Shown in pieces: positions 20,693 through 31,782 of a DNA stretch of 32,298 nucleotides. The position numbers and the translations under genes are program-made. Each line of letters opens with the position of its first letter. Position 1 is the stretch's first letter. Below the pieces are notes generated by a model that was given only the letters and a program-made list of their open reading frames with translations, made no database searches and had not been told where the DNA came from. Source of the DNA: a virus; the IMG/VR virus record IMGVR_UViG_3300035183_000514, positions 1-32,298 of that record; one strand, 5' to 3'.

Positions 20693-21067
20693 ATGCCTTT
20701 TTCTCCAGCTCAAAACGAGCGTCTCTTTCTTCTTACATCGGTTAGTCTGGATGCAGGAGCGGCTGACCGTGAGTTTACCTTCCGCGTGCCTTTCGGTTGC
20801 ACCGTGGTTGCGTTGGAAGCGGCAGCGGATGCAGCCGACGCTACAAACAAAGTTACGCCGTCTTTGCGGCGGGGCACGACTGACATTGTGCTGGCGTCTG
20901 CGGTTACATCGGCGGACACCGTGGTCCGCAAGACCACGCCCGAGGCTAACCAGAGCTTAAACCTGGATGGCGGCGAGACCATGAAAATTGCCTTGGTCTT
21001 TGGTGGAACGCCGGCCAACGTCAAGGGCATCAATGTTGTGGTCTGGGCCACGCCTCGCGTGTACTAA
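20693..21067 (+). CDS. Small beta-rich virion protein, first of a tandem pair
   Basis: 124 residues, clearly related to the next gene. Shared parts: D-x-GA-x-x-REF-x-F-x-x-PF (20-35), a D-A-A-x-A-T-x-K-x-TPS segment and the near-identical ending GTPANVKGINV-x-x-W-x-x-P. A beta-sandwich with no Cys is likely. Position after the major capsid gene suggests a head decoration or stabilising protein; this is inference. AAGGAG precedes the ATG. Confidence 0.75.
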   Translation: MPFSPAQNERLFLLTSVSLDAGAADREFTFRVPFGCTVVALEAAADAADATNKVTPSLRRGTTDIVLASAVTSADTVVRKTTPEANQSLNLDGGETMKIALVFGGTPANVKGINVVVWATPRVY

Positions 21068-21082
21068 ACTGAAAGGAAGACC

Positions 21083-21436
21083 ATGGGCGCGTTCTTTAAG
21101 AAATGTCTGGCTTCCGTTTGCATTGATGTGGGGGCGGCGACGAGAGAATTTAGCTTTCAGTTGCCGTTTCAGGCGGCGATTAGTGAGCTAATTGCTTCCG
21201 CCGACGCGGCCAGTGCCACTGACAAATTCACTCCCTCCGTGGTGGTGAACGGCACGACGGTGCTCACCGGCGCGGATGTTACGGCAGCGGATACCCCGAT
21301 CGTGAATGCGGTTAATCAGGGGGCTGACAAAACTATCCCCGCGTACACTACGTGCAAGATCGTTATTACGTTTGCTGGCACCCCCGCAAACGTAAAGGGT
21401 ATTAACGTTAGTCTGTGGGGCTACCCCAAACGCTAA
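21083..21436 (+). CDS. Small beta-rich virion protein, second of a tandem pair
   Basis: 117 residues, paralogous to the gene before it; REFSFQLPF and GTPANVKGINVSLWGYP match the partner. It differs at the N-terminus (MGAFFKKCLASVC). GAAAGGAAG lies before the ATG. The stop shares a base with the ATG of a 24-residue membrane peptide (TAATG). Probably a head decoration protein like its partner. Confidence 0.75.
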   Translation: MGAFFKKCLASVCIDVGAATREFSFQLPFQAAISELIASADAASATDKFTPSVVVNGTTVLTGADVTAADTPIVNAVNQGADKTIPAYTTCKIVITFAGTPANVKGINVSLWGYPKR

Positions 21437-22864: not shown

Positions 22865-23161
22865 ATGGACATAGCTGCTGTCGTAGCAGCCGTCGCGTCC
22901 TCTACGGCAGTGGCTTTGCTTTGCTTTTTGGCGAAGTTTATATTTGACGTTTCTAACAAGCAAACGTATCTCAGCACTTGGGCCGAAGGGCACGAAGCAC
23001 TGGACCGGGAACGCTTCACGGCTATAGAACGAGCTATTCAGCACAGAGAAAATATGGAGTGCCAGCGATTCAACGATATACGGGCGGCTGTTAGCCGCAT
23101 TGACGACCGGCTGGCGCATACCGAGAAATTTGAGCACCGAGAGGACACATGGCGACAGTAA
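22865..23161 (+). CDS. Membrane-anchored coiled-coil protein
   Basis: 98 residues: one membrane helix (about 5-27, AAVVAAVASSTAVALLCFLA) followed by a charged helix with coiled-coil character (to about 95). AGGAG lies four bases before the ATG. Topology resembles small holin-like or spanin-like proteins, or an ejection-associated membrane protein. It overlaps the adaptor start by 13 bases. Confidence 0.72.
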   Translation: MDIAAVVAAVASSTAVALLCFLAKFIFDVSNKQTYLSTWAEGHEALDRERFTAIERAIQHRENMECQRFNDIRAAVSRIDDRLAHTEKFEHREDTWRQ

Positions 23162-23889
23162 ATGATTTGCTTCGGCGCGTGCGGGTGGACCTGCATGAGC
23201 CGGTAGAGGCGGTGTGGTCTGACTCCGATATCGCGCAGTGGATTAACGCTGGCATTTATCGCGTCATGGTCCGGCTGAAAGGCGTGCGGGACGACTGGGC
23301 AACCCGGCGTATGCGGAGCACGGATAGCGCCGAAACCATCAACAACACTACCTATAACCCCAGCAATTTGCAAATTACGGCAGGCACGACGATTTACACC
23401 TTGCCGCCGAACCTGCTGGAGATTCGCACGCTGGAGCCACTCAACCAATCGGATATCAATGCTGGAGTAAAGTTTTTGCCCCGCGACATGTCCAGCCTTG
23501 AATGGATTACCATGAACCGCGAGCAGCCGACGACCCAGGTTGTATATTTTTATGACCTGTATGGCACCAACAGCTTGCGAATTACCCCCACGCCAACGGC
23601 AACAATCGACACGGAGATATATTACATTGCGGCTCCGAGTGCTGATCTGGGGCTTGGCGATGCGATTACACAAATACCGTTGTGGACGCTCCATGCCGTG
23701 GAACAATATGCTGTCTACCGCGCGCTGCGAGCGATTAACCACCCAGACGCGAACAGCGAGTTAGCCCGCGCTGATCGGGAACTCGCCGAAATGGTTAGCA
23801 TGGCGTCACCTCGTGAAACAAACGATCCGAAAATTGTAGAAGGGATTTTTGATGAGGAAGACCTGTTGCCTTTTGTTTTTACTTATTAG
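23149..23889 (+). CDS. Putative head-tail adaptor protein
   Basis: 246 residues. The start, MATVNDLLRRVRVDLHEPVE, followed by WSDSDIAQWINAGIYRVMVR (23-42), is the helical opening seen in P22 gp4-like adaptors that bind below the portal. An inner beta region follows (TIYTLPPNLLEIRTLEPL), and the protein ends in helices (LHAVEQYAVYRALRAI) and a C-terminal tail reaching IVEGIFDEEDLLPF. GAGAGGAC precedes the ATG. The order adaptor, fibre-like gene, nozzle fits a short tail. Confidence 0.78.
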   Translation: MATVNDLLRRVRVDLHEPVEAVWSDSDIAQWINAGIYRVMVRLKGVRDDWATRRMRSTDSAETINNTTYNPSNLQITAGTTIYTLPPNLLEIRTLEPLNQSDINAGVKFLPRDMSSLEWITMNREQPTTQVVYFYDLYGTNSLRITPTPTATIDTEIYYIAAPSADLGLGDAITQIPLWTLHAVEQYAVYRALRAINHPDANSELARADRELAEMVSMASPRETNDPKIVEGIFDEEDLLPFVFTY

Positions 23890-25633
23890 TTTGCTGGTGG
23901 GGCGGAGCGTAGACGCTGTCCAGACAACATACGTGCTGGTAGGCTCGCAAGACCTGGACCTCGGGGCGCTCAGCTTTACCACGAACTTTCTGGACACGCA
24001 GGCTGGGTATCTGAGCTATGTGGGGATTAGTTTTTCTTCCGCCCCTGAAGCCAGCGAAACGATTGTTGTGTACGTCGCCAGCCGTAACGGCAGCACGTTT
24101 GATACCGAGCTGGGGCGAATCAGCACGATAGCTGGAACAACCAAGACAGTCACCTTTTTATTTAACGAGTCGGTGCCCGTCAATGCGCTGGATCAGATCA
24201 AAGTCACCTGCACCAACAACAGCCAGAGTGTGGGTGAAGTCAACGACGATCCTACCGTTTCCGTCACCGTAGCGATGGACACCACGGCGCGCCAGGGCGG
24301 CATTATCCAGATTTACCGAGACGGCCAATTCGTGGTGGCTGAGGGAATACATGACTATCGTATGCATTTTGGCGACGTTATTCCTGACGCCAACCAGGAT
24401 TTTGGGCCATACTATTCAGACTGGACCCAAATGCCGACTCCTAGCAACCCGGCAACCGGCACGCGACGGTTGTTTGTCGATAGCAGCACCGGTCAGCTAT
24501 CTGTCCGCACCAGCGCTGGCACGACGGTGAGCCTGGAAGCTGCCGGGTCCGGGTATACCACCATTTATGACGAAACAACCCAGCTCACACAACGGTCTAA
24601 CCTAAAGTTCACGGGGAGTGGGGTAACCTGTACCGACAACGGTACAGACTCCACGGTGTGTGATGTGCCGTCAGGGTCCGGGTACAATACGGTGTACGAT
24701 GAATCGACGCAGTTGACACAGCGGTCTAAGCTGAAGTTCACGGGCGGCGGGGTAACATGCACCGACAACGGTACAGACACTACGGTGTGTGACGTACCGT
24801 CCGGGTCTGGCTCTGGGGACATCACTACGGTGGGTAGCTGTCTTACCGGCGATTGCGCCGTTGAGGGCGGCCAGGATGTCTTCCCGATGCTTTACGAGGG
24901 TACGGCGAATGCGTTTGAAACGACATTCACGGCGAATGACCCCACGGCAGATCGCACTATTACTTTTCCGGATGCAACCGGCGAGGTGAGCCTGCTCGGT
25001 CAGACCATTGACCTTACATCTGAGGTAACAGGCACGCTGCCTGTAGCCAATGGCGGCACTGGGCGATCCTCCCTGACTGGAGATGATTACACGCTAGTGG
25101 CGGATTCGGCCACGTCCCTTACACCGCGCCAGCTTCCGAACTGCACGGACACGGGCGGTCAGCATTTGAACTACTCGCAAGCCACAAACACCTTTAGTTG
25201 TGGCACATCGAGCGGATCATCGGGTACAACCAAACTGATGTTTTCTGGGAACACCAACGGTACGGCGATGAGCACGAGTCCTGCGTATCATATCGTGTCC
25301 GGCCAGAGCGGCCCGGCAAGCACAGAATCCAAGCAAGCCAGAGCTAACGCCTTTGTTCTGAGCGGCACGTTCAAAAATATGTATTGTGAGCTTGGCACAG
25401 CGCCGGGTGCTGGCAACACCAGGAGTGTTACTTTGACGCGGCTAGGACCAACCGCTACTGCCGTTACATGCAACATCGCTGGCACGGCCACGACATGTAG
25501 CGACACTACAAACACTGCAACTATAACCGCTTCTGCCAGCAGCCCTGTATACATGGAATACCGATGGGCGACTGTCGCTGGCACGCCAGCCAACTCAACC
25601 GCTACGTGCTCTATTGAGTTCGATCCATCGTAA
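23852..25633 (+). CDS. Tail-fibre-like protein with N-terminal signal peptide and Cys pairs
   Basis: 593 residues from ATG 23852 (AAGGGA six bases upstream; an in-frame TTG precedes it). The N-terminus is a textbook signal peptide: MRKTCC, then LLFLLISLLVG, then RSVDA with likely cleavage before VQTT. This is odd for a virion gene. Further on, two tandem 43-residue units (YDE-x-TQLTQRS-x-LKFTG-x-GVTC) resemble repeats of phage fibres, and VANGGTGRSSL (about 398-408) is a common fibre motif. Many Cys pairs occur in the second half, suggesting disulphides and export. It overlaps the adaptor gene by 38 bases. A fibre or a secreted accessory protein are both possible. Confidence 0.75.
   Translation: MRKTCCLLFLLISLLVGRSVDAVQTTYVLVGSQDLDLGALSFTTNFLDTQAGYLSYVGISFSSAPEASETIVVYVASRNGSTFDTELGRISTIAGTTKTVTFLFNESVPVNALDQIKVTCTNNSQSVGEVNDDPTVSVTVAMDTTARQGGIIQIYRDGQFVVAEGIHDYRMHFGDVIPDANQDFGPYYSDWTQMPTPSNPATGTRRLFVDSSTGQLSVRTSAGTTVSLEAAGSGYTTIYDETTQLTQRSNLKFTGSGVTCTDNGTDSTVCDVPSGSGYNTVYDESTQLTQRSKLKFTGGGVTCTDNGTDTTVCDVPSGSGSGDITTVGSCLTGDCAVEGGQDVFPMLYEGTANAFETTFTANDPTADRTITFPDATGEVSLLGQTIDLTSEVTGTLPVANGGTGRSSLTGDDYTLVADSATSLTPRQLPNCTDTGGQHLNYSQATNTFSCGTSSGSSGTTKLMFSGNTNGTAMSTSPAYHIVSGQSGPASTESKQARANAFVLSGTFKNMYCELGTAPGAGNTRSVTLTRLGPTATAVTCNIAGTATTCSDTTNTATITASASSPVYMEYRWATVAGTPANSTATCSIEFDPS
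24545..24802 (+). repeat. Two tandem 129-bp coding repeats
   Basis: Unit 1 is 24545-24673 and unit 2 is 24674-24802, in frame, 43 codons each. They encode GSGY-T/N-T followed by conserved TQLTQRS, LKFTG, GVTCTDNGTD and VCDVPS. Third-base differences show that the copies are not brand new. Confidence 0.85.
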
Positions 25634-25697
25634 CGAACCCACCAACATTTACTTCACAATTCGGTTAGCAAAAATTATGTATTAGGGTGCTATCCCC

Positions 25698-27071
25698 ATG
25701 CCAGATAATTTTTTCATCCAGGAACAGCCGGGAAGCTGGTTCGGGCTATACAGTCAGGCAAGCGAACCGGCGGCGTTGAATACGCGGTTCTTCACTATGT
25801 TTCACAACATGGTGATCCACAACGGTATGCCGCAATCTCGCCCGGGACGGCGGATTCTAAACTCCACGCTGCTCGGTGATGGCGCAAGAACCGTGTACGG
25901 AATCGGTATATGGCGGGCGTCTAGCGGTGATTTACTGATTGTGGCGTGTGGAAGTTTGTTGCAGTCTCTCCCAATTACTGGCGGCGATCCCACCACGCTA
26001 GCGACTAGCTATCCTACCGGGTTCCGCACATCCCCCACAGGAGCCAGAACAATTTTCGCTCAGCTTGGTGGTAGGCTGTTTATTGTCAACGGCGTTGATG
26101 CTAATGTGAAGTTCAACGGCACCAACTTGACGCGCATGGGGCTGGTGGCCCCTTCTACGCTGACCGCGCCAACAAAATCCGGGGGCACCCTTACCGGCAC
26201 CCGAAAGTATGTGGCAACGCTGGTATCAAGTACCATTAACGGCAGCGTTGAGTCAGAACCCACGGCAGCCATAAGCGTCAGCTATACAAACCAGCAGGGC
26301 ACATTCAGCGCACCTGCGGTGCCTAGCAGTGATCCCCAGGTAGACAGGTGGAACCTCTACGGCACAACCATGGGAGGGAGCACCTATTATAAGCTTAATT
26401 CTACCCCACAATCGCGGTCAGCAACGATTGTAGATAACCTGACTGACGCCAGCATTCAGGCTGGCACGCTGCTGGCTGCATCGTTGACCAACAGCCCTCC
26501 CCCTGGCACGTTTCGGCTGCTAACTCCACACCAGGGTAGACTGGTTGGCGTAACTGCTGAAGAACCAAACACGCTATATTGGAGCGATCTTGGGCTTGAT
26601 CTGGCGGGAATCTATCCCAAACCGGAAAGCTGGCCGCCGCGCAATAGAATCGTCTTCGGTGAAAACGGTGGTACGGCCATTACGGCGCTAGTGAGCTTTT
26701 TTGACTGGCTATTGGTGTTCCAGAATTTCGGCACCTGGTCCATTAAGGACGATATCAATTCTGACGCCAAGATCATTCGCCCGCTGTTGGTGGGCCCGGA
26801 TAACCGGGGTATTGGCGTTGCTGACCAAACTAACGTCGCCATTGCAGAAAATAAGGTGATCTTTGCCGCCAAAGATGGGTTATACCATATCATACGGGAA
26901 GTGGGGTTCGTGCAGGCTGATCTGGCAGTGAGGCCGCTGTCTTCCAACGTTTCGGACCTGTATCAGAGCATTAATTTTGGCGCGGGCGGTTGTTCCATTT
27001 ATGACCGAGACAAAAAACGTTGGGTATTTTGGGGCAAAGGCCGTGAAAATCTCGACGTGACACAAAACTAA
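25698..27071 (+). CDS. Putative tail nozzle protein, N-terminal part
   Basis: 457 residues with the composition and motifs of short-tail nozzle (gp10/gp12-like) proteins. It has an N-terminal strand region (GLYSQASEPAALNTRFFTMF), repeated propeller-like blades (GIGIWRASSGDLLIVACG, then GGRLFIVNGVDANVKF, then GRLVGVTAEEPNTLYWSDLG), a receptor-facing stretch and a late blade CSIYDRDKKRWVFWGKG. It ends abruptly at DVTQN where a further blade would be expected. The gene at 29885 begins, after a short leader, with a matching continuation. AGGGTG lies nine bases before the ATG. Confidence 0.75.
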   Translation: MPDNFFIQEQPGSWFGLYSQASEPAALNTRFFTMFHNMVIHNGMPQSRPGRRILNSTLLGDGARTVYGIGIWRASSGDLLIVACGSLLQSLPITGGDPTTLATSYPTGFRTSPTGARTIFAQLGGRLFIVNGVDANVKFNGTNLTRMGLVAPSTLTAPTKSGGTLTGTRKYVATLVSSTINGSVESEPTAAISVSYTNQQGTFSAPAVPSSDPQVDRWNLYGTTMGGSTYYKLNSTPQSRSATIVDNLTDASIQAGTLLAASLTNSPPPGTFRLLTPHQGRLVGVTAEEPNTLYWSDLGLDLAGIYPKPESWPPRNRIVFGENGGTAITALVSFFDWLLVFQNFGTWSIKDDINSDAKIIRPLLVGPDNRGIGVADQTNVAIAENKVIFAAKDGLYHIIREVGFVQADLAVRPLSSNVSDLYQSINFGAGGCSIYDRDKKRWVFWGKGRENLDVTQN

Positions 27072-27072
27072 C

Positions 27073-29883
27073 ATGAGCTACGTAAAGTCAGGAACAGCAA
27101 ACATAACATTTTACAACGGCACGTCCTTCTATCAGTTTGAGCAACGGGTTCCTTTAAACATTGCATCCGGCTCAGCCAGTGATATGGATGTTATAACGGT
27201 GGTGTCTTTTACCGCGCAATTTGCTGAGCCAGTGCCAGCGAATACGCTCATTGCGATGTATCCGTCTGGCAGTATCAGCCCCCTACTCAGCGGCACAATC
27301 CCTGCCGGTGAGCGAACGATCAGCTTGAGTGCGTCGGCATCACAGCTCAGTGCGGCTGGTCTTCAGGGCGGTACCCTCTGGAAATATGCATACCTGAGCG
27401 TAATTCCGCAAACCGTTCCGACAAGCCCCACCAATGTAACGATCCAGATGTCCGCGACACTGAACGTGACCAGCACTACCGGCACGGTGCCTGCTGGCAC
27501 CACAGGCGACCGGTTTGCTGTACGGACCCAGCCACCGTCTACCATCGCACCGAATACCCAGTTCACCATAAACATAGATGTTGTGGACAGTAACGGTCAC
27601 CGCGATGCGGGCTACGAAGGTTGGGCATATGTATCAATGTACTACACAGACGAAGCTATCGCTAAATCGGGATGGCTGGCGGCTGAGCCCAAAGTTATAT
27701 TTTATTCCCTACATATTGAAGACGGTACGGCAAGTGTTACGGTGTCGATCTTGCCCGCACATGCCAACCATGATGTGTATTGGAAGATTGAGCCAGAAGG
27801 TGTCGGTTACACCACGCCGCAGAAAACAACCACACACACATGCCACGTAACAGGCACTGGCGGTGGGCCTAGCTGGCATCTTAGCTTTGCGACGCAACCC
27901 CAACTCATTAACACCCTCGGTGATACCATACCCGCTGTAAGCGTGGAGATACTTGACGCAAACGGTAATGTTGATCCGACATTTTTGGACTATGTGCAGC
28001 TTCAGGTCAATAAAGCAGATGGAAAAACGCCAGCGGATACCGGCAGTCTGAGCGGCACTACATTTGTTAAGCTTAGTGGCGGAGTGGCTACATTTGATAC
28101 GTTAAAGGTGCTAAAGCCGGGGGGATATACGCTGCGGGCAACACACTCCTTGGCACGATCGACTACCAGCAACGTGTTTTATGGTGTCGGCACGGATGTT
28201 CTGGCCTCTAGCACAGCGCTTCGGCAGAATATCCGGAACGACAATACTGCATGGCAGAAGACTACCGGCACATCTAATCCTACGTTTGCGACTCCTTCCA
28301 GCACCGAACTCAACAACGTCAACGGCGACCTGGCTAGCACCAACAAGGTTACAGTTGACGGCTTTCGTATGACCTTTCCCTTTTATATGGTGCTTACGAA
28401 GGTCATAATAAAGGCTAAGGTAAGCTCGGTGACGGCTGGTCCATACTGGCAGCTATACACCAGCGATGACACCACAACACCCACCAACGGGACGTGGAAG
28501 GTCAGGAAATCGTATACGCCACCAAACACCAATATCACAACTGTTACCTGGACATTCCCCACAACCACAGTCACCAAAGGATTGTGGGTGACACAAAATA
28601 AAAACGGCGGTAGCAGTACGTGTGACTGGTACAGCATTCAGGTGTTTGGTCATTACATGAATAGTGATATTCAATTTTTCGATGTCACCACCCACCAGCC
28701 GGTTGTTGAAGAGTATATCGGTGTACCGAACCCGTTCAAGACGCTGAGTGGGGCGCAAACCGTGTCCCGGACCCTGCTCGTAAAGAACAACACCTCCGCG
28801 ACAAAACAACTCCAGCTACAACTTGAGCCGATTCGGTCCGGCGGTGATACGCGGGCGGACGCTGATAATGCGGTGCTCTTGGACGAATCCGGTAAAGTGC
28901 TGGACTATCCGCTCATTGTTCCTGCTGATGGCTTTGGAACGTTTCAGGTGAAGTACACGATAGCCGCTGCCGATAACGACAATTCCGGCAAGCATTACAT
29001 GCGGATCAATGCCTACGAATGGGAAGAAACCACGGGCTGGATAGGCACGATATGGACCGGCACTAATCAATTTGTTCTCAAGGGCATTGTGTCTGGTTCT
29101 AATGTCGGAGCCGTCGGTGGCACGAACGTTACGGATTGTGCGTATGACGTGGCGCACCGCAGTCTTCTTTCGTTGTGGATAGGCACTGGCGGATTGAACA
29201 CCTCGTTGTTTGTTGATTGCTCCACACCAACAGGCGCTGGTCCCCTACCTTGGAGCCAGATCACCGGTGTAACTCCTAATACTGGCTTTACCAGGCTGGC
29301 CTTTAGGGATGACAATATATTGCTCACCCGCAACGACAGCACAACCTGTTATGTCTTTTCCAAGGTGTACTCGTTGTCTGGCAGTCAACCGCTCTCAACA
29401 GCCAGCACCTTTACCTTGCCCACTGCCGCTACTGGAGATAAAATAGCGGTTGGTAGCGACACAGGATATTTCCACATTCTGAACGGCACTAGCGGTAGCG
29501 TGCGGCTGTACAGATCGACAACGTCCGGGGCTATAGCGGGCAATGTGTCGCTGTCGTCGTGGTTGGGGTCTGGCACGATTACCGGGATGTGGTACGATGC
29601 TATCAACAGGTTGATATTCTTAGTGACTGCCGTGAGCGGCGGTACGCGAAAGATTGCATGGTACAACTCGACCACGCTGCAACAAGTTGGCACCGCCACC
29701 AATGCCGACCGGAACACGTTTGACTGCTACGGGGGGTTCACCCAGGGCACCAGCTATTATTTGTTCTTTGGGGCGCGGTATTTATGGCGATACGCTTCAA
29801 CGTCATATTCCGGCGGCACGGAGATCAAAGACTTTGCGCCGTCGTCGCCCAGCACGAAAGGCCCGGCCTATTCGGTGATCTAA
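27073..29883 (+). CDS. Large beta-rich virion protein inserted between nozzle halves
   Basis: 936 residues, Thr/Ser/Gly-rich. It has several Ig-like or beta-sandwich segments (for example FAVRTQPPSTIAPNTQFTIN, and the related FATQPQLINTLGDTIPAV; the latter look like repeats of one domain). The region at about 440-530 could be a carbohydrate-binding sandwich. The C-terminal third has blade-like strands (CAYDVAHRSLLSLWIG, then YFHILNGTSGSVRLYRS). It may be a host-contact fibre. It starts in TAA-C-ATG with no good ribosome site, so translation probably depends on the previous gene. No catalytic motif is seen. Confidence 0.75.
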   Translation: MSYVKSGTANITFYNGTSFYQFEQRVPLNIASGSASDMDVITVVSFTAQFAEPVPANTLIAMYPSGSISPLLSGTIPAGERTISLSASASQLSAAGLQGGTLWKYAYLSVIPQTVPTSPTNVTIQMSATLNVTSTTGTVPAGTTGDRFAVRTQPPSTIAPNTQFTINIDVVDSNGHRDAGYEGWAYVSMYYTDEAIAKSGWLAAEPKVIFYSLHIEDGTASVTVSILPAHANHDVYWKIEPEGVGYTTPQKTTTHTCHVTGTGGGPSWHLSFATQPQLINTLGDTIPAVSVEILDANGNVDPTFLDYVQLQVNKADGKTPADTGSLSGTTFVKLSGGVATFDTLKVLKPGGYTLRATHSLARSTTSNVFYGVGTDVLASSTALRQNIRNDNTAWQKTTGTSNPTFATPSSTELNNVNGDLASTNKVTVDGFRMTFPFYMVLTKVIIKAKVSSVTAGPYWQLYTSDDTTTPTNGTWKVRKSYTPPNTNITTVTWTFPTTTVTKGLWVTQNKNGGSSTCDWYSIQVFGHYMNSDIQFFDVTTHQPVVEEYIGVPNPFKTLSGAQTVSRTLLVKNNTSATKQLQLQLEPIRSGGDTRADADNAVLLDESGKVLDYPLIVPADGFGTFQVKYTIAAADNDNSGKHYMRINAYEWEETTGWIGTIWTGTNQFVLKGIVSGSNVGAVGGTNVTDCAYDVAHRSLLSLWIGTGGLNTSLFVDCSTPTGAGPLPWSQITGVTPNTGFTRLAFRDDNILLTRNDSTTCYVFSKVYSLSGSQPLSTASTFTLPTAATGDKIAVGSDTGYFHILNGTSGSVRLYRSTTSGAIAGNVSLSSWLGSGTITGMWYDAINRLIFLVTAVSGGTRKIAWYNSTTLQQVGTATNADRNTFDCYGGFTQGTSYYLFFGARYLWRYASTSYSGGTEIKDFAPSSPSTKGPAYSVI

Positions 29884-29884
29884 T

Positions 29885-30526
29885 ATGGGATTTCTACCAG
29901 GAGCGCATGCGGTAATAGAATTGGGAAAGGCCATTGCAAACCCCAGTGGCCCAACCCTGGATTTAGCGGATTTAAACTTTGCCGTTGTGATGGCCGAAGA
30001 GACGGAAGAACCGACAGCCCGTTTCTCTACATGGGGGATGGCGGCTGATGCAGGAACCGTATACCAGTCCAACACGGCTGGCAATAAAATTATAATCGGC
30101 GACGCCGGGAACTTGTATGTATTGGATCCAGATATCCACAGTGACGATGGCGTGCCGATTCCGCTGGTGATACAAACCGGCCCGTTTCCGGGTGTGGAAG
30201 ACAACACGCCAGCGAATGTGAAAAAGCGGATTCATGAAATAAGCTGGCAGGTAGCTACCGCGCCACCGCCGGGCGGCTATCTCGTGTGGGTAACTGTTAT
30301 GGACGTAGACAACCCCGCCACAAATTACCGGCAATTTGCTGTTCGGCAAACCACGCGGCAAGTCTTGCTTCGCGTGGGGCTGGAATGTCGGCAATTCAAG
30401 ATACGAATTGAGCTTACCACGTCCCAAACTTACGATATCATCACGATCGGCGTAAAGGGGCAGTTGCTACACATGCCCTACACCAAGCTCGCTAACACTC
30501 AATCTCTCACTGTAGGTAACAAGTAA
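29885..30526 (+). CDS. Putative tail nozzle protein, C-terminal part
   Basis: 213 residues. After about 30 leader residues comes NFAVVMAEETEEPTARFSTW (about 38-57), which reads as the continuation of the blade that stops in the gene ending at 27071. IIGDAGNLYVLDPDIHSDDG and TPANVKKRIHEISWQVA follow, then the beta region RQVLLRVGLECRQFKIRIEL, the pattern of the C-terminal part of gp10/gp12-like nozzles. It follows TAA-T-ATG with no strong ribosome site. Could also be an independent tail protein. Confidence 0.65.
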   Translation: MGFLPGAHAVIELGKAIANPSGPTLDLADLNFAVVMAEETEEPTARFSTWGMAADAGTVYQSNTAGNKIIIGDAGNLYVLDPDIHSDDGVPIPLVIQTGPFPGVEDNTPANVKKRIHEISWQVATAPPPGGYLVWVTVMDVDNPATNYRQFAVRQTTRQVLLRVGLECRQFKIRIELTTSQTYDIITIGVKGQLLHMPYTKLANTQSLTVGNK

Positions 30527-30527
30527 T

Positions 30528-31226
30528 ATGGATAGTAATTCTTACGGAAAAACGAACAGTCCCAAAGAATATTTTGGTCTTCGTAGTAACGCCGGGGACG
30601 GCTCCAACTCAAGCTGGCTGAGCTTTAAAGACCTGCTGGCCAAGTTCAGCTCATACGAGCCCCGGTTCGACCCCATTGATAGGGCCGGGCTGGAAAATCT
30701 AAAGAATCGTCTGGCGGAAGCTGATCGGTTAGCCGCCGACCCGCTCAGCTCGCCAGGAGCACAAAAAGCCCTTCAGGCGATTAACCAGGGCGCAGCCCGC
30801 CGTGCGGAGTTTGAGCGCGGGGCTGCTATCGGGCGTGGGGCGGCGACTGGCGCGAATGCATTTAGCGGCAGTCTCGCACAAACGGCAGGAGACATTGTGA
30901 GTCGTCAAAATGACGCCGTTACAGCTATGACCGGCGAGCTGGCTAACAAGCTCATGCAGCAATACCGGGAGGAAGGCTTGTCCTTAAGCCAGGCATACGC
31001 TGCTACACTCAACGACATGGCGCGCATAAATACCGATCGGGAAAAGGTGCGCGCTGACTGGAATGCACAACTGGCGTCAATCCTACAGCGATATAACGAC
31101 CTGCGCTATCAAACCATGATGGAGCAAGCCAGGATAGCCGAAAACGCCCGGCAATTTGACGTATTACACCCCAACGATAAGCGCGTAAACTGGAAAAATT
31201 ACTTCGACATGCTGTTTTACCGCTAG
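30528..31226 (+). CDS. Helical protein, possible internal or ejection protein
   Basis: 232 residues, mostly helical. Ala-rich centre (GAAIGRGAATGANAFSGSL), then long helices with Gln/Arg (MQQYREEGLSLSQAYAATLN, then LASILQRYNDLRYQTMMEQA). The composition and place after the nozzle fit the internal ejection proteins of short-tailed phages, which form a channel during DNA entry. No signature motif, so this is by analogy. Another TAA-T-ATG junction without a strong ribosome site. Confidence 0.65.
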   Translation: MDSNSYGKTNSPKEYFGLRSNAGDGSNSSWLSFKDLLAKFSSYEPRFDPIDRAGLENLKNRLAEADRLAADPLSSPGAQKALQAINQGAARRAEFERGAAIGRGAATGANAFSGSLAQTAGDIVSRQNDAVTAMTGELANKLMQQYREEGLSLSQAYAATLNDMARINTDREKVRADWNAQLASILQRYNDLRYQTMMEQARIAENARQFDVLHPNDKRVNWKNYFDMLFYR

Positions 31227-31249
31227 GGGATTTATGGCTTTTTACACTT

Positions 31250-31272
31250 ATTCCAGTGAGAATTAAACTATG
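31250..31272 (+). repeat. Leader repeat, copy 1
   Basis: A 23-base stretch ending in the ATG (ATTCCAGTGAGAATTAAACT plus ATG), identical to 31802-31824 before the next paralogue. The shared leader carries the only visible ribosome site (GTGAG), which is weak. Confidence 0.9.
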
Positions 31273-31782
31273 GCAGCGAGAATATCAACGAAATTCGAGG
31301 ATTTTATACAAAAAAAGATCGACGATCCATTCGGCCCGCCACCCACTCCAGAACAAATCGAAGAGGCCACGAAAGAAAAACTCAAACAACTCAGAGCCGA
31401 GAGCCAGCTTATGGCCCTGCGACGCGTAAATGAACTCGAGCAAGTTTGGGAGCAAAACAGGAAACGAATGGCAGAGGCGTATGCCGCGCCGGGGGTGTAT
31501 AAGCCGGACATGGGAAGAGAGGCCAGCGAATGGATGAAAAGTGCGGAAGGGAACGACAACATGGCACTGCAATACATGTTGGAGTCCGCACTTGCCGGTA
31601 AACAGATGCATTTTACTATCGGATCAAATCTATCCGGCCCTATCATCAAAGACGACTCCGAGAAGAGGCGTATGCTGGAGGAGCAGGACCGCCAGCGCAG
31701 AGATTTAATAGCCAAATACGGCGAGCGTGGGTTTATGGATCTCCTCGCTAATCTGCAAAATGGTCAGCAAGCAGAAGAATAA
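31270..31782 (+). CDS. Right-end paralogue 1 with shared block
   Basis: 170 residues, helical and charged. Related to the next gene: TKEKLKQLR, MALRRVNELEQ-x-W, then the identical block AEGNDNMALQYMLESALAGK followed by QMHFTIGSNLSGPIIKD. Ends with KYGERGFMDLLANLQ, matching KYGQRGFESLLAGIQ in the partner. Unrecognised; position after the ejection-type gene suggests a virion or entry role. Confidence 0.72.
   Translation: MAARISTKFEDFIQKKIDDPFGPPPTPEQIEEATKEKLKQLRAESQLMALRRVNELEQVWEQNRKRMAEAYAAPGVYKPDMGREASEWMKSAEGNDNMALQYMLESALAGKQMHFTIGSNLSGPIIKDDSEKRRMLEEQDRQRRDLIAKYGERGFMDLLANLQNGQQAEE
31542..31653 (+). repeat. 112-bp perfect repeat, copy 1
   Basis: Identical over 112 bases to 32067-32178 and in frame in both paralogues. 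Flanking bases differ sharply. Confidence 0.93.

What the first reader, a model, noticed from the sequence alone, without database searches (positions are those of the whole stretch)
25698..30526. Nozzle gene apparently split by a 936-residue gene
The 457-residue product stops after a propeller-like strand (RWVFWGKGRENLDVTQN). The product at 29885 resumes with LADLNFAVVMAEETEEP and nozzle-like C-terminal motifs. Between them lies a large beta-rich gene with tight TAA-N-ATG joints on both sides. A tail protein assembled from two chains, with a host-contact gene inserted at the break, would be unusual.
Basis: partly seen in the sequence, partly recalled or inferred. Interest (0 to 1): 0.7.

Follow-up and report, generated by a model that had tools for sequence, protein, structure and literature searches.

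The report
Phage tail nozzle split between two genes
In a small group of uncultured short-tailed phages the protein that forms the DNA-exit nozzle is encoded as two pieces, cut inside one beta-hairpin, with a 936-residue gene of unknown function sitting in the cut; three divergent phages share this layout while their nearest known relative has the nozzle in one piece.

Summary
Window 25698-27071 (N, 457 aa), 27073-29883 (M, 936 aa) and 29885-30526 (C, 213 aa) are joined by TAA-C-ATG and TAA-T-ATG. Two further virus records share the order N-M-C (N 52%, C 35-38%, M 35-36% identical over its conserved part), with the break at the same place, so this is neither a sequencing error nor decay. N is homologous to podophage nozzle / head-closure (Hc3) proteins. 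The closest known relative by major capsid protein, podovirus MW202554, has a single 542-aa nozzle in the same operon slot. A profile of N joined to C aligns to the one-piece nozzles straight through the break (55.2, against 46.6 for N alone; 0 of 200 controls with shuffled C reach it). N+M, N+M+C and C+N do not extend. By sequence the break lies in a beta-hairpin turn of a late propeller blade. No second nozzle, intein, intron or conserved frameshift signal was found. Most likely the nozzle is built from two separately translated chains. M is probably a virion protein at the tail tip, but its function rests on gene position and composition only. The structure predictions were poor (pLDDT 34 and 42), so the two-chain fold is inferred, not shown.

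The parts
23149..23889 (+). adaptor (head-completion) protein upstream of the nozzle
   Evidence: Pfam PF24175 SU10_adaptor E 1.9e-17; phrog_399 5e-15; orthologues in L001, L021 and MW202554
25698..27071 (+). N: N-terminal two thirds of the nozzle (platform N-terminus, FN3-like insert, most propeller blades); 457 aa
   Evidence: phrog_511 1.2e-10, phrog_8040 head closure Hc3 4.5e-4; HMM of fused nozzles E 8.5e-18 over aa 124-347; 52% identical in L001 and L021. Domain names are transferred from T7/SU10 nozzles, not modelled here.
27069..27075 (+). first junction, TAA-C-ATG; position of the break in a beta-hairpin turn
   Evidence: equivalent loop in fused MW202554 is residues ~352-363 (ANRLGANNTEA)
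27073..29883 (+). M: 936-aa beta-rich gene inside the break; aa 1-217 variable, aa ~265-655 conserved (Ig-like and jelly-roll-like), aa ~670-936 five ~45-aa blade-like segments
   Evidence: 35% identity over aa 265-920 to L021 (E 2e-105), 36% over 218-651 to L001; no Pfam, PHROG or PDB match; domain descriptions are by eye from the sequence
29881..29887 (+). second junction, TAA-T-ATG
29885..30526 (+). C: C-terminal third of the nozzle (last blade strands plus C-terminal platform); 213 aa, first ~26 aa a new lead
   Evidence: 35-38% identical in L021 and L001; hhalign 28.3 to fused nozzles, shuffled columns mean 15.0, max 24.5 of 200; AF2 model aa 89-193 aligned by VIA to P22 gp10 374-472, Z 6.6, tied with unrelated jelly rolls
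30528..31226 (+). next gene downstream, probably an ejection (internal virion) protein; closes the nozzle slot
   Evidence: homologue directly after C in L001 (E 2e-10); helical, Ala/Gln-rich sequence; function is inference

Best explanation
N and C are two separately translated chains that together make one nozzle subunit. In one-chain nozzles (T7 gp12, SU10 gp17) a seven-bladed propeller sits on a platform made of strands from both ends of the chain. Here the chain is cut in the turn of a beta-hairpin in a late blade: N ends with two strands of that blade, and C brings the following strands, the last blade and the rest of the platform. The two chains would be held together twice, in the cut blade and in the platform sandwich, so neither is dispensable; that would explain why both are conserved. 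They come from one polycistronic message with stop-start joints from an 8-nt overlap to +3 nt, so translational coupling can keep amounts equal. M occupies the slot between them. In related phages the gene right after the nozzle is often a tail-fibre gene, so M most likely is a tail-tip or fibre protein that entered the nozzle gene at a turn that tolerates a break, and may attach there. Shown: homology of N, continuity of N with C, conserved layout, fused relatives. Inferred: two-chain assembly, coupling, role of M.
For: N is homologous to nozzles. N+C profile aligns through the junction to fused nozzles famA (MW202554, HMO-2011, CRP-207) 275-560 -> 156-394, score 55.2; N alone 46.6; N+shuffled C mean 46.85, sd 0.74, max 54.7 of 200; N+M 48.3, N+M+C 48.0, C+N 46.8. 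Same layout in three divergent records. The lineage nearest by MCP keeps terL, portal, MCP, adaptor in order and has a fused 542-aa nozzle. No other nozzle copy in the three records. No Rfam match in 25000-31500. C's modelled sandwich superposes on P22 gp10 374-472. Blade and platform layout of T7 and SU10 nozzles from PMC6702177 and PMC9509320.
Against: C alone matches fused nozzles only weakly (hhalign probability 7.5%), and one of 200 shuffles came close (54.7). Against single sequences, or the SU10 or phrog_511 groups, adding C gives no clear gain. AF2 models are poor (pLDDT 34 and 42), so the blade assignment is by sequence only. VIA matches to P22 gp10 are tied with unrelated folds. No protein or virion data. 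M has no recognised relative among neighbouring fibre genes.
Confidence: 0.8

Rival explanations
1. Recoding or splicing joins the pieces: frameshift, bypassing, intron, intein or trans-splicing restores one nozzle chain.
For: Joints are tight and fused relatives exist.
Against: Joint geometry differs in each phage: +1/+1 nt in the window, overlap GTGTCTAG and +2 nt in L001, +1 and +3 nt in L021. M fills the gap but for one base on each side, leaving no room for an intron; no Rfam match; no intein or homing-nuclease family in N, M or C.
Confidence: 0.04
2. N alone is a shortened nozzle and C is an independent virion protein, as may be the case in Pseudomonas phage KPP25, whose 398-aa nozzle (phrog_8040) stops shortly after the same point.
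For: KPP25 Hc3 protein is 398 aa, ends ~30 aa past the equivalent of the break (by eye) and is followed by an overlapping 171-aa virion gene.
Against: C, unlike the KPP25 171-aa protein, continues the fused nozzle profile at the right place and its modelled sandwich covers the P22 gp10 C-terminal platform. The KPP25 protein shows no similarity to C.
Confidence: 0.13
3. Assembly error or pseudogene: a nozzle gene broken by an insertion in one contig.
For: The window is a metagenomic virus record, possibly a fragment.
Against: Three records with 35-54% protein identity share it, all frames open, same break point.
Confidence: 0.01

Closest known systems
Fused nozzle of podovirus MW202554 (542 aa, 'phage stabilization protein') and of HMO-2011 / CRP-207
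   Same: Same operon slot after the adaptor; alignable to N and, through the junction, to C
   Different: One chain; the break is an ~11-residue hairpin loop; the fibre or tail-collar gene lies downstream, not inside; MW202554 lacks the FN3-like insert of N
phrog_511-type nozzles (JC1 'head closure protein', MW202744; solved relative PDB 8jov_A)
   Same: Homologous over N aa 124-347 including the FN3-like insert
   Different: One chain of 530-650 aa
P22 gp10, T7 gp12, SU10 gp17 nozzles
   Same: Propeller plus two-ended platform architecture of T7 and SU10 (PMC6702177, PMC9509320); P22 gp10 374-472 superposes on the C model
   Different: One chain. T7 and SU10 carry inserts near blades 2-3; the present break is late, just before the point of SU10's short-fibre dock loop. 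Direct sequence similarity to these is not detectable except by family profiles.
Pseudomonas phage KPP25 short nozzle (398 aa, phrog_8040, PDB 26fb_K)
   Same: phrog_8040 matches N (4.5e-4, L001 2.8e-7, L021 3.5e-9); chain ends near the break
   Different: Ends ~30 aa later; next gene is not similar to C; no large gene inserted

Membership tests
Podophage nozzle / head closure Hc3 | Sequence homology to nozzle families | tested here: met
   N: phrog_511 1.2e-10, phrog_8040 down to 3.5e-9; fused-family HMM 8.5e-18. C: only as continuation of N.
Podophage nozzle / head closure Hc3 | Gene directly downstream of the adaptor in the tail module | tested here: met
   SU10_adaptor at 23149-23889; directly before N in L021, separated by one fibre-like gene in the window and L001.
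Podophage nozzle / head closure Hc3 | Propeller and C-terminal platform on one polypeptide | tested here: not met
   Platform part is on a separate ORF in all three records. A variant, not a typical member.
Podophage nozzle / head closure Hc3 | C-terminal platform fold | tested here: inconclusive
   C model aa 89-193 aligns to P22 gp10 374-472, Z 6.6, but pLDDT 42 and tied with unrelated jelly rolls.
Podophage nozzle / head closure Hc3 | Hexameric ring below the adaptor in the virion | not testable with these tools
   Needs virion biochemistry or cryo-EM.
Intron- or intein-interrupted phage gene | Self-splicing RNA, intein or homing nuclease in the insert | tested here: not met
   No Rfam match, no such Pfam or PHROG family in N, M or C, one spare base on each side of M.
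Tail fibre / receptor-binding protein (for M) | Match to a known fibre, spike or receptor-binding family | tested here: not met
   No Pfam, PHROG or PDB match; no similarity to fibre genes of relatives.

The most novel reading that the evidence does not exclude
A three-chain tail nozzle: M is a structural subunit that docks at, or threads strands into, the cut blade, so the broken hairpin is itself the attachment point of the tail-tip protein. Splitting the nozzle would then be the device by which these phages hang a large adhesin on the DNA-exit channel.
Probability: 0.3. Interest if true: 0.75.

Novelty: new variant of a known kind. Interest (0 to 1): 0.57.

Why it matters
The nozzle gates DNA release in short-tailed phages, and in the one-chain examples looked at here (P22, T7, SU10, phrog_511, HMO-2011 and MW202554 types) the whole nozzle is one polypeptide. 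A conserved cut inside one propeller blade suggests that this conserved tail part can be built by strand complementation between two chains, gives a natural split site for engineering or labelling nozzles, and warns annotators that a nozzle ORF lacking its C-terminal platform may have it one gene further on.

Tried and rejected
AF2 on N (pLDDT 34) and C (pLDDT 42) with three-sequence alignments: too poor to decide the fold; the N model was not searched. VIA and Foldseek on the C model return generic jelly rolls and carbohydrate modules as well as P22 gp10 and SU10 chains: consistent, not discriminating. tblastn of N, M and C against 50,697 phages: no match at the limits used (0.01, 0.1, 0.1); genome contigs with N and M profiles: none; further viral-contig scans gave only the same two relatives. 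Idea that the break equals SU10's short-fibre dock loop: rejected, the break lies ~40 residues earlier. Idea that it equals T7's nozzle-tip insert: rejected, that one is in blade 3 (PMC6702177). KPP25 as an already known split nozzle: its downstream gene is not similar to C. M as a relocated downstream fibre of relatives: no detectable similarity. A read-through of M into C was translated (P0001) but not folded.

Full report
Observation. The three ORFs and both TAA-N-ATG joints are exactly as described. I call them N (457 aa), M (936 aa) and C (213 aa). The window is a 32.3-kb virus record with a podophage structural module: terminase, portal, major capsid protein, an SU10-type adaptor (PF24175, 1.9e-17), one fibre-like gene, then N-M-C and a probable ejection protein.

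N is a nozzle fragment. N matches phrog_511 (1.2e-10) and phrog_8040 'head closure Hc3' (4.5e-4; 2.8e-7 and 3.5e-9 for its relatives). An HMM of thirteen fused nozzles from annotated phages hits N at 8.5e-18 over aa 124-347. The same fused family matches a solved phage chain, 8jov_A, at 9e-125. P22 gp10 is phrog_578 and T7 gp12 is phrog_457; C gives only a marginal hit to phrog_578 (0.07).

The layout is conserved. L001 carries N (52%), M (36% over aa 218-651) and C (38%) in the same order. A scan with the major capsid protein found L021, again N (52%), M (35% over aa 265-920) and C (35%). All three N chains stop within a dozen residues after the same G-(K/R)-G motif, and all three C chains start with a ~26-residue lead before a conserved D-(L/V)-x-x-LN strand. 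The joints differ: window +1/+1 nt, L001 GTG overlapping the stop (GTGTCTAG) and +2 nt, L021 +1 and +3 nt. That speaks for separate chains with coupled translation and against a fixed recoding signal. There is no Rfam match and no spare DNA for an intron.

One-piece relatives. The best annotated relative by major capsid protein is podovirus MW202554 (35%), which keeps terminase, portal (27%), MCP and adaptor (32%) in order and has a single 542-aa 'phage stabilization protein' after the adaptor, followed by a tail-collar gene. HMO-2011 and CRP-207 have one-piece nozzles of 502 and 512 aa, each followed by a fibre gene. Nearly all other nozzles examined are one full-length chain, so the split is most simply read as derived; the exception in length is KPP25 (below).

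C is the continuation of N. Aligned to the family of MW202554, HMO-2011 and CRP-207, the N profile scores 46.6 and ends at N's own end. The N+C profile scores 55.2 and the alignment runs on through the junction into C (275-560 onto 156-394). With C columns shuffled 200 times the score is 46.85 +/- 0.74, maximum 54.7. N+M (48.3), N+M+C (48.0) and C+N (46.8) do not extend. C alone scores 28.3, shuffled 15.0 +/- 2.4, maximum 24.5. Read together, the N end 'YDRDKKRWVFWGKG' pairs with 'HDSTRNLVIFLANR' and C 'LNFAVVMAEETEEPTARFSTWGM' with 'AFVADYYHLDEQGNPTWSLYSNM' of MW202554, so the break is the ~11-residue turn ANRLGANNTEA (exact pairing adjusted by eye). By eye SU10 gp17 reads 'HQDKKEVWVLYVGPGEPKESFACTKAAVWNYEFDTWSFRTIP' at the same place, about 40 residues before the fibre-dock loop described in PMC9509320. 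This signal is real but not strong: against single sequences or the SU10 and phrog_511 groups, C adds little.

Structure. AF2 with three sequences failed for N (pLDDT 34) and was weak for C (42; a six-stranded sandwich at aa 115-194 with pLDDT about 60). VIA-align places C aa 89-193 on P22 gp10 374-472 (Z 6.6, rmsd 2.8) and aa 83-193 on 327-472, i.e. the C-terminal end of the nozzle, but many unrelated jelly rolls score the same. It is consistent support only.

Mechanism. In T7 and SU10 the propeller is entered from, and left into, the platform at one blade, and the platform takes strands from both ends of the chain (PMC6702177, PMC9509320). If that layout holds here, N and C interlock at two sites, the cut blade and the platform. 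Both pieces would then be obligatory, which fits their joint conservation and the absence of another nozzle copy. This is inference from homology.

M. M has no Pfam, PHROG or PDB match and no detectable similarity to the fibre genes of relatives. By eye its conserved middle looks like Ig-like and jelly-roll domains, and its last 270 residues like five 45-residue blades; its first ~217 residues are not alignable between phages. Its constant place in the cut, the variable N-terminus and the fibre gene next to the nozzle in relatives make a tail-tip or adhesin protein the best guess (about 0.55), but host contact is not shown.

Precedent check. KPP25's phrog_8040 nozzle (398 aa) ends ~30 aa beyond the equivalent of the break and is followed by a 171-aa virion protein that is not similar to C. 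It shows that short nozzle chains exist but is not the same arrangement. My literature searches found no report of a two-chain nozzle; the library is partial.

Verdict. A conserved two-gene nozzle with a large gene in the break: a new variant of a known part.

Noticed in passing
window 23849-25633; L001 5008-7992: Fibre-like gene between adaptor and nozzle begins with a signal-peptide-like stretch (RKTCCLLFLLISLLVGRSVDA / RCTLAAILLLGSLLLGSPASA); 43% identical over the first ~130 residues, then diverging. L021 lacks this gene. A secretion signal on a phage virion gene is odd.
   Followed up: partly
L001 3620-4378 and 4347-5126: Two tandem adaptor-like genes, both similar to the single window adaptor 23149-23889.
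   Followed up: no
window 20693-21067 and 21083-21436: Two adjacent small genes both match the same single gene in L021 (9497-9886) and L001, a likely tandem duplication after the capsid gene.
   Followed up: no
L021 3138-4118 and 4013-4822; L023 2320-3975 and 4168-4857: The large terminase gene is in two overlapping ORFs in L021 and is annotated in two pieces in MW202554; could be frameshift error, recoding or a real split.
   Followed up: no
L038 4347-6048 (phage KPP25): The 398-aa Hc3 nozzle seems to lack a C-terminal platform in the same chain and is followed by an overlapping 171-aa virion gene of phrog_8123; both are in solved structures (26fb_K, 26la_U).
   Followed up: partly
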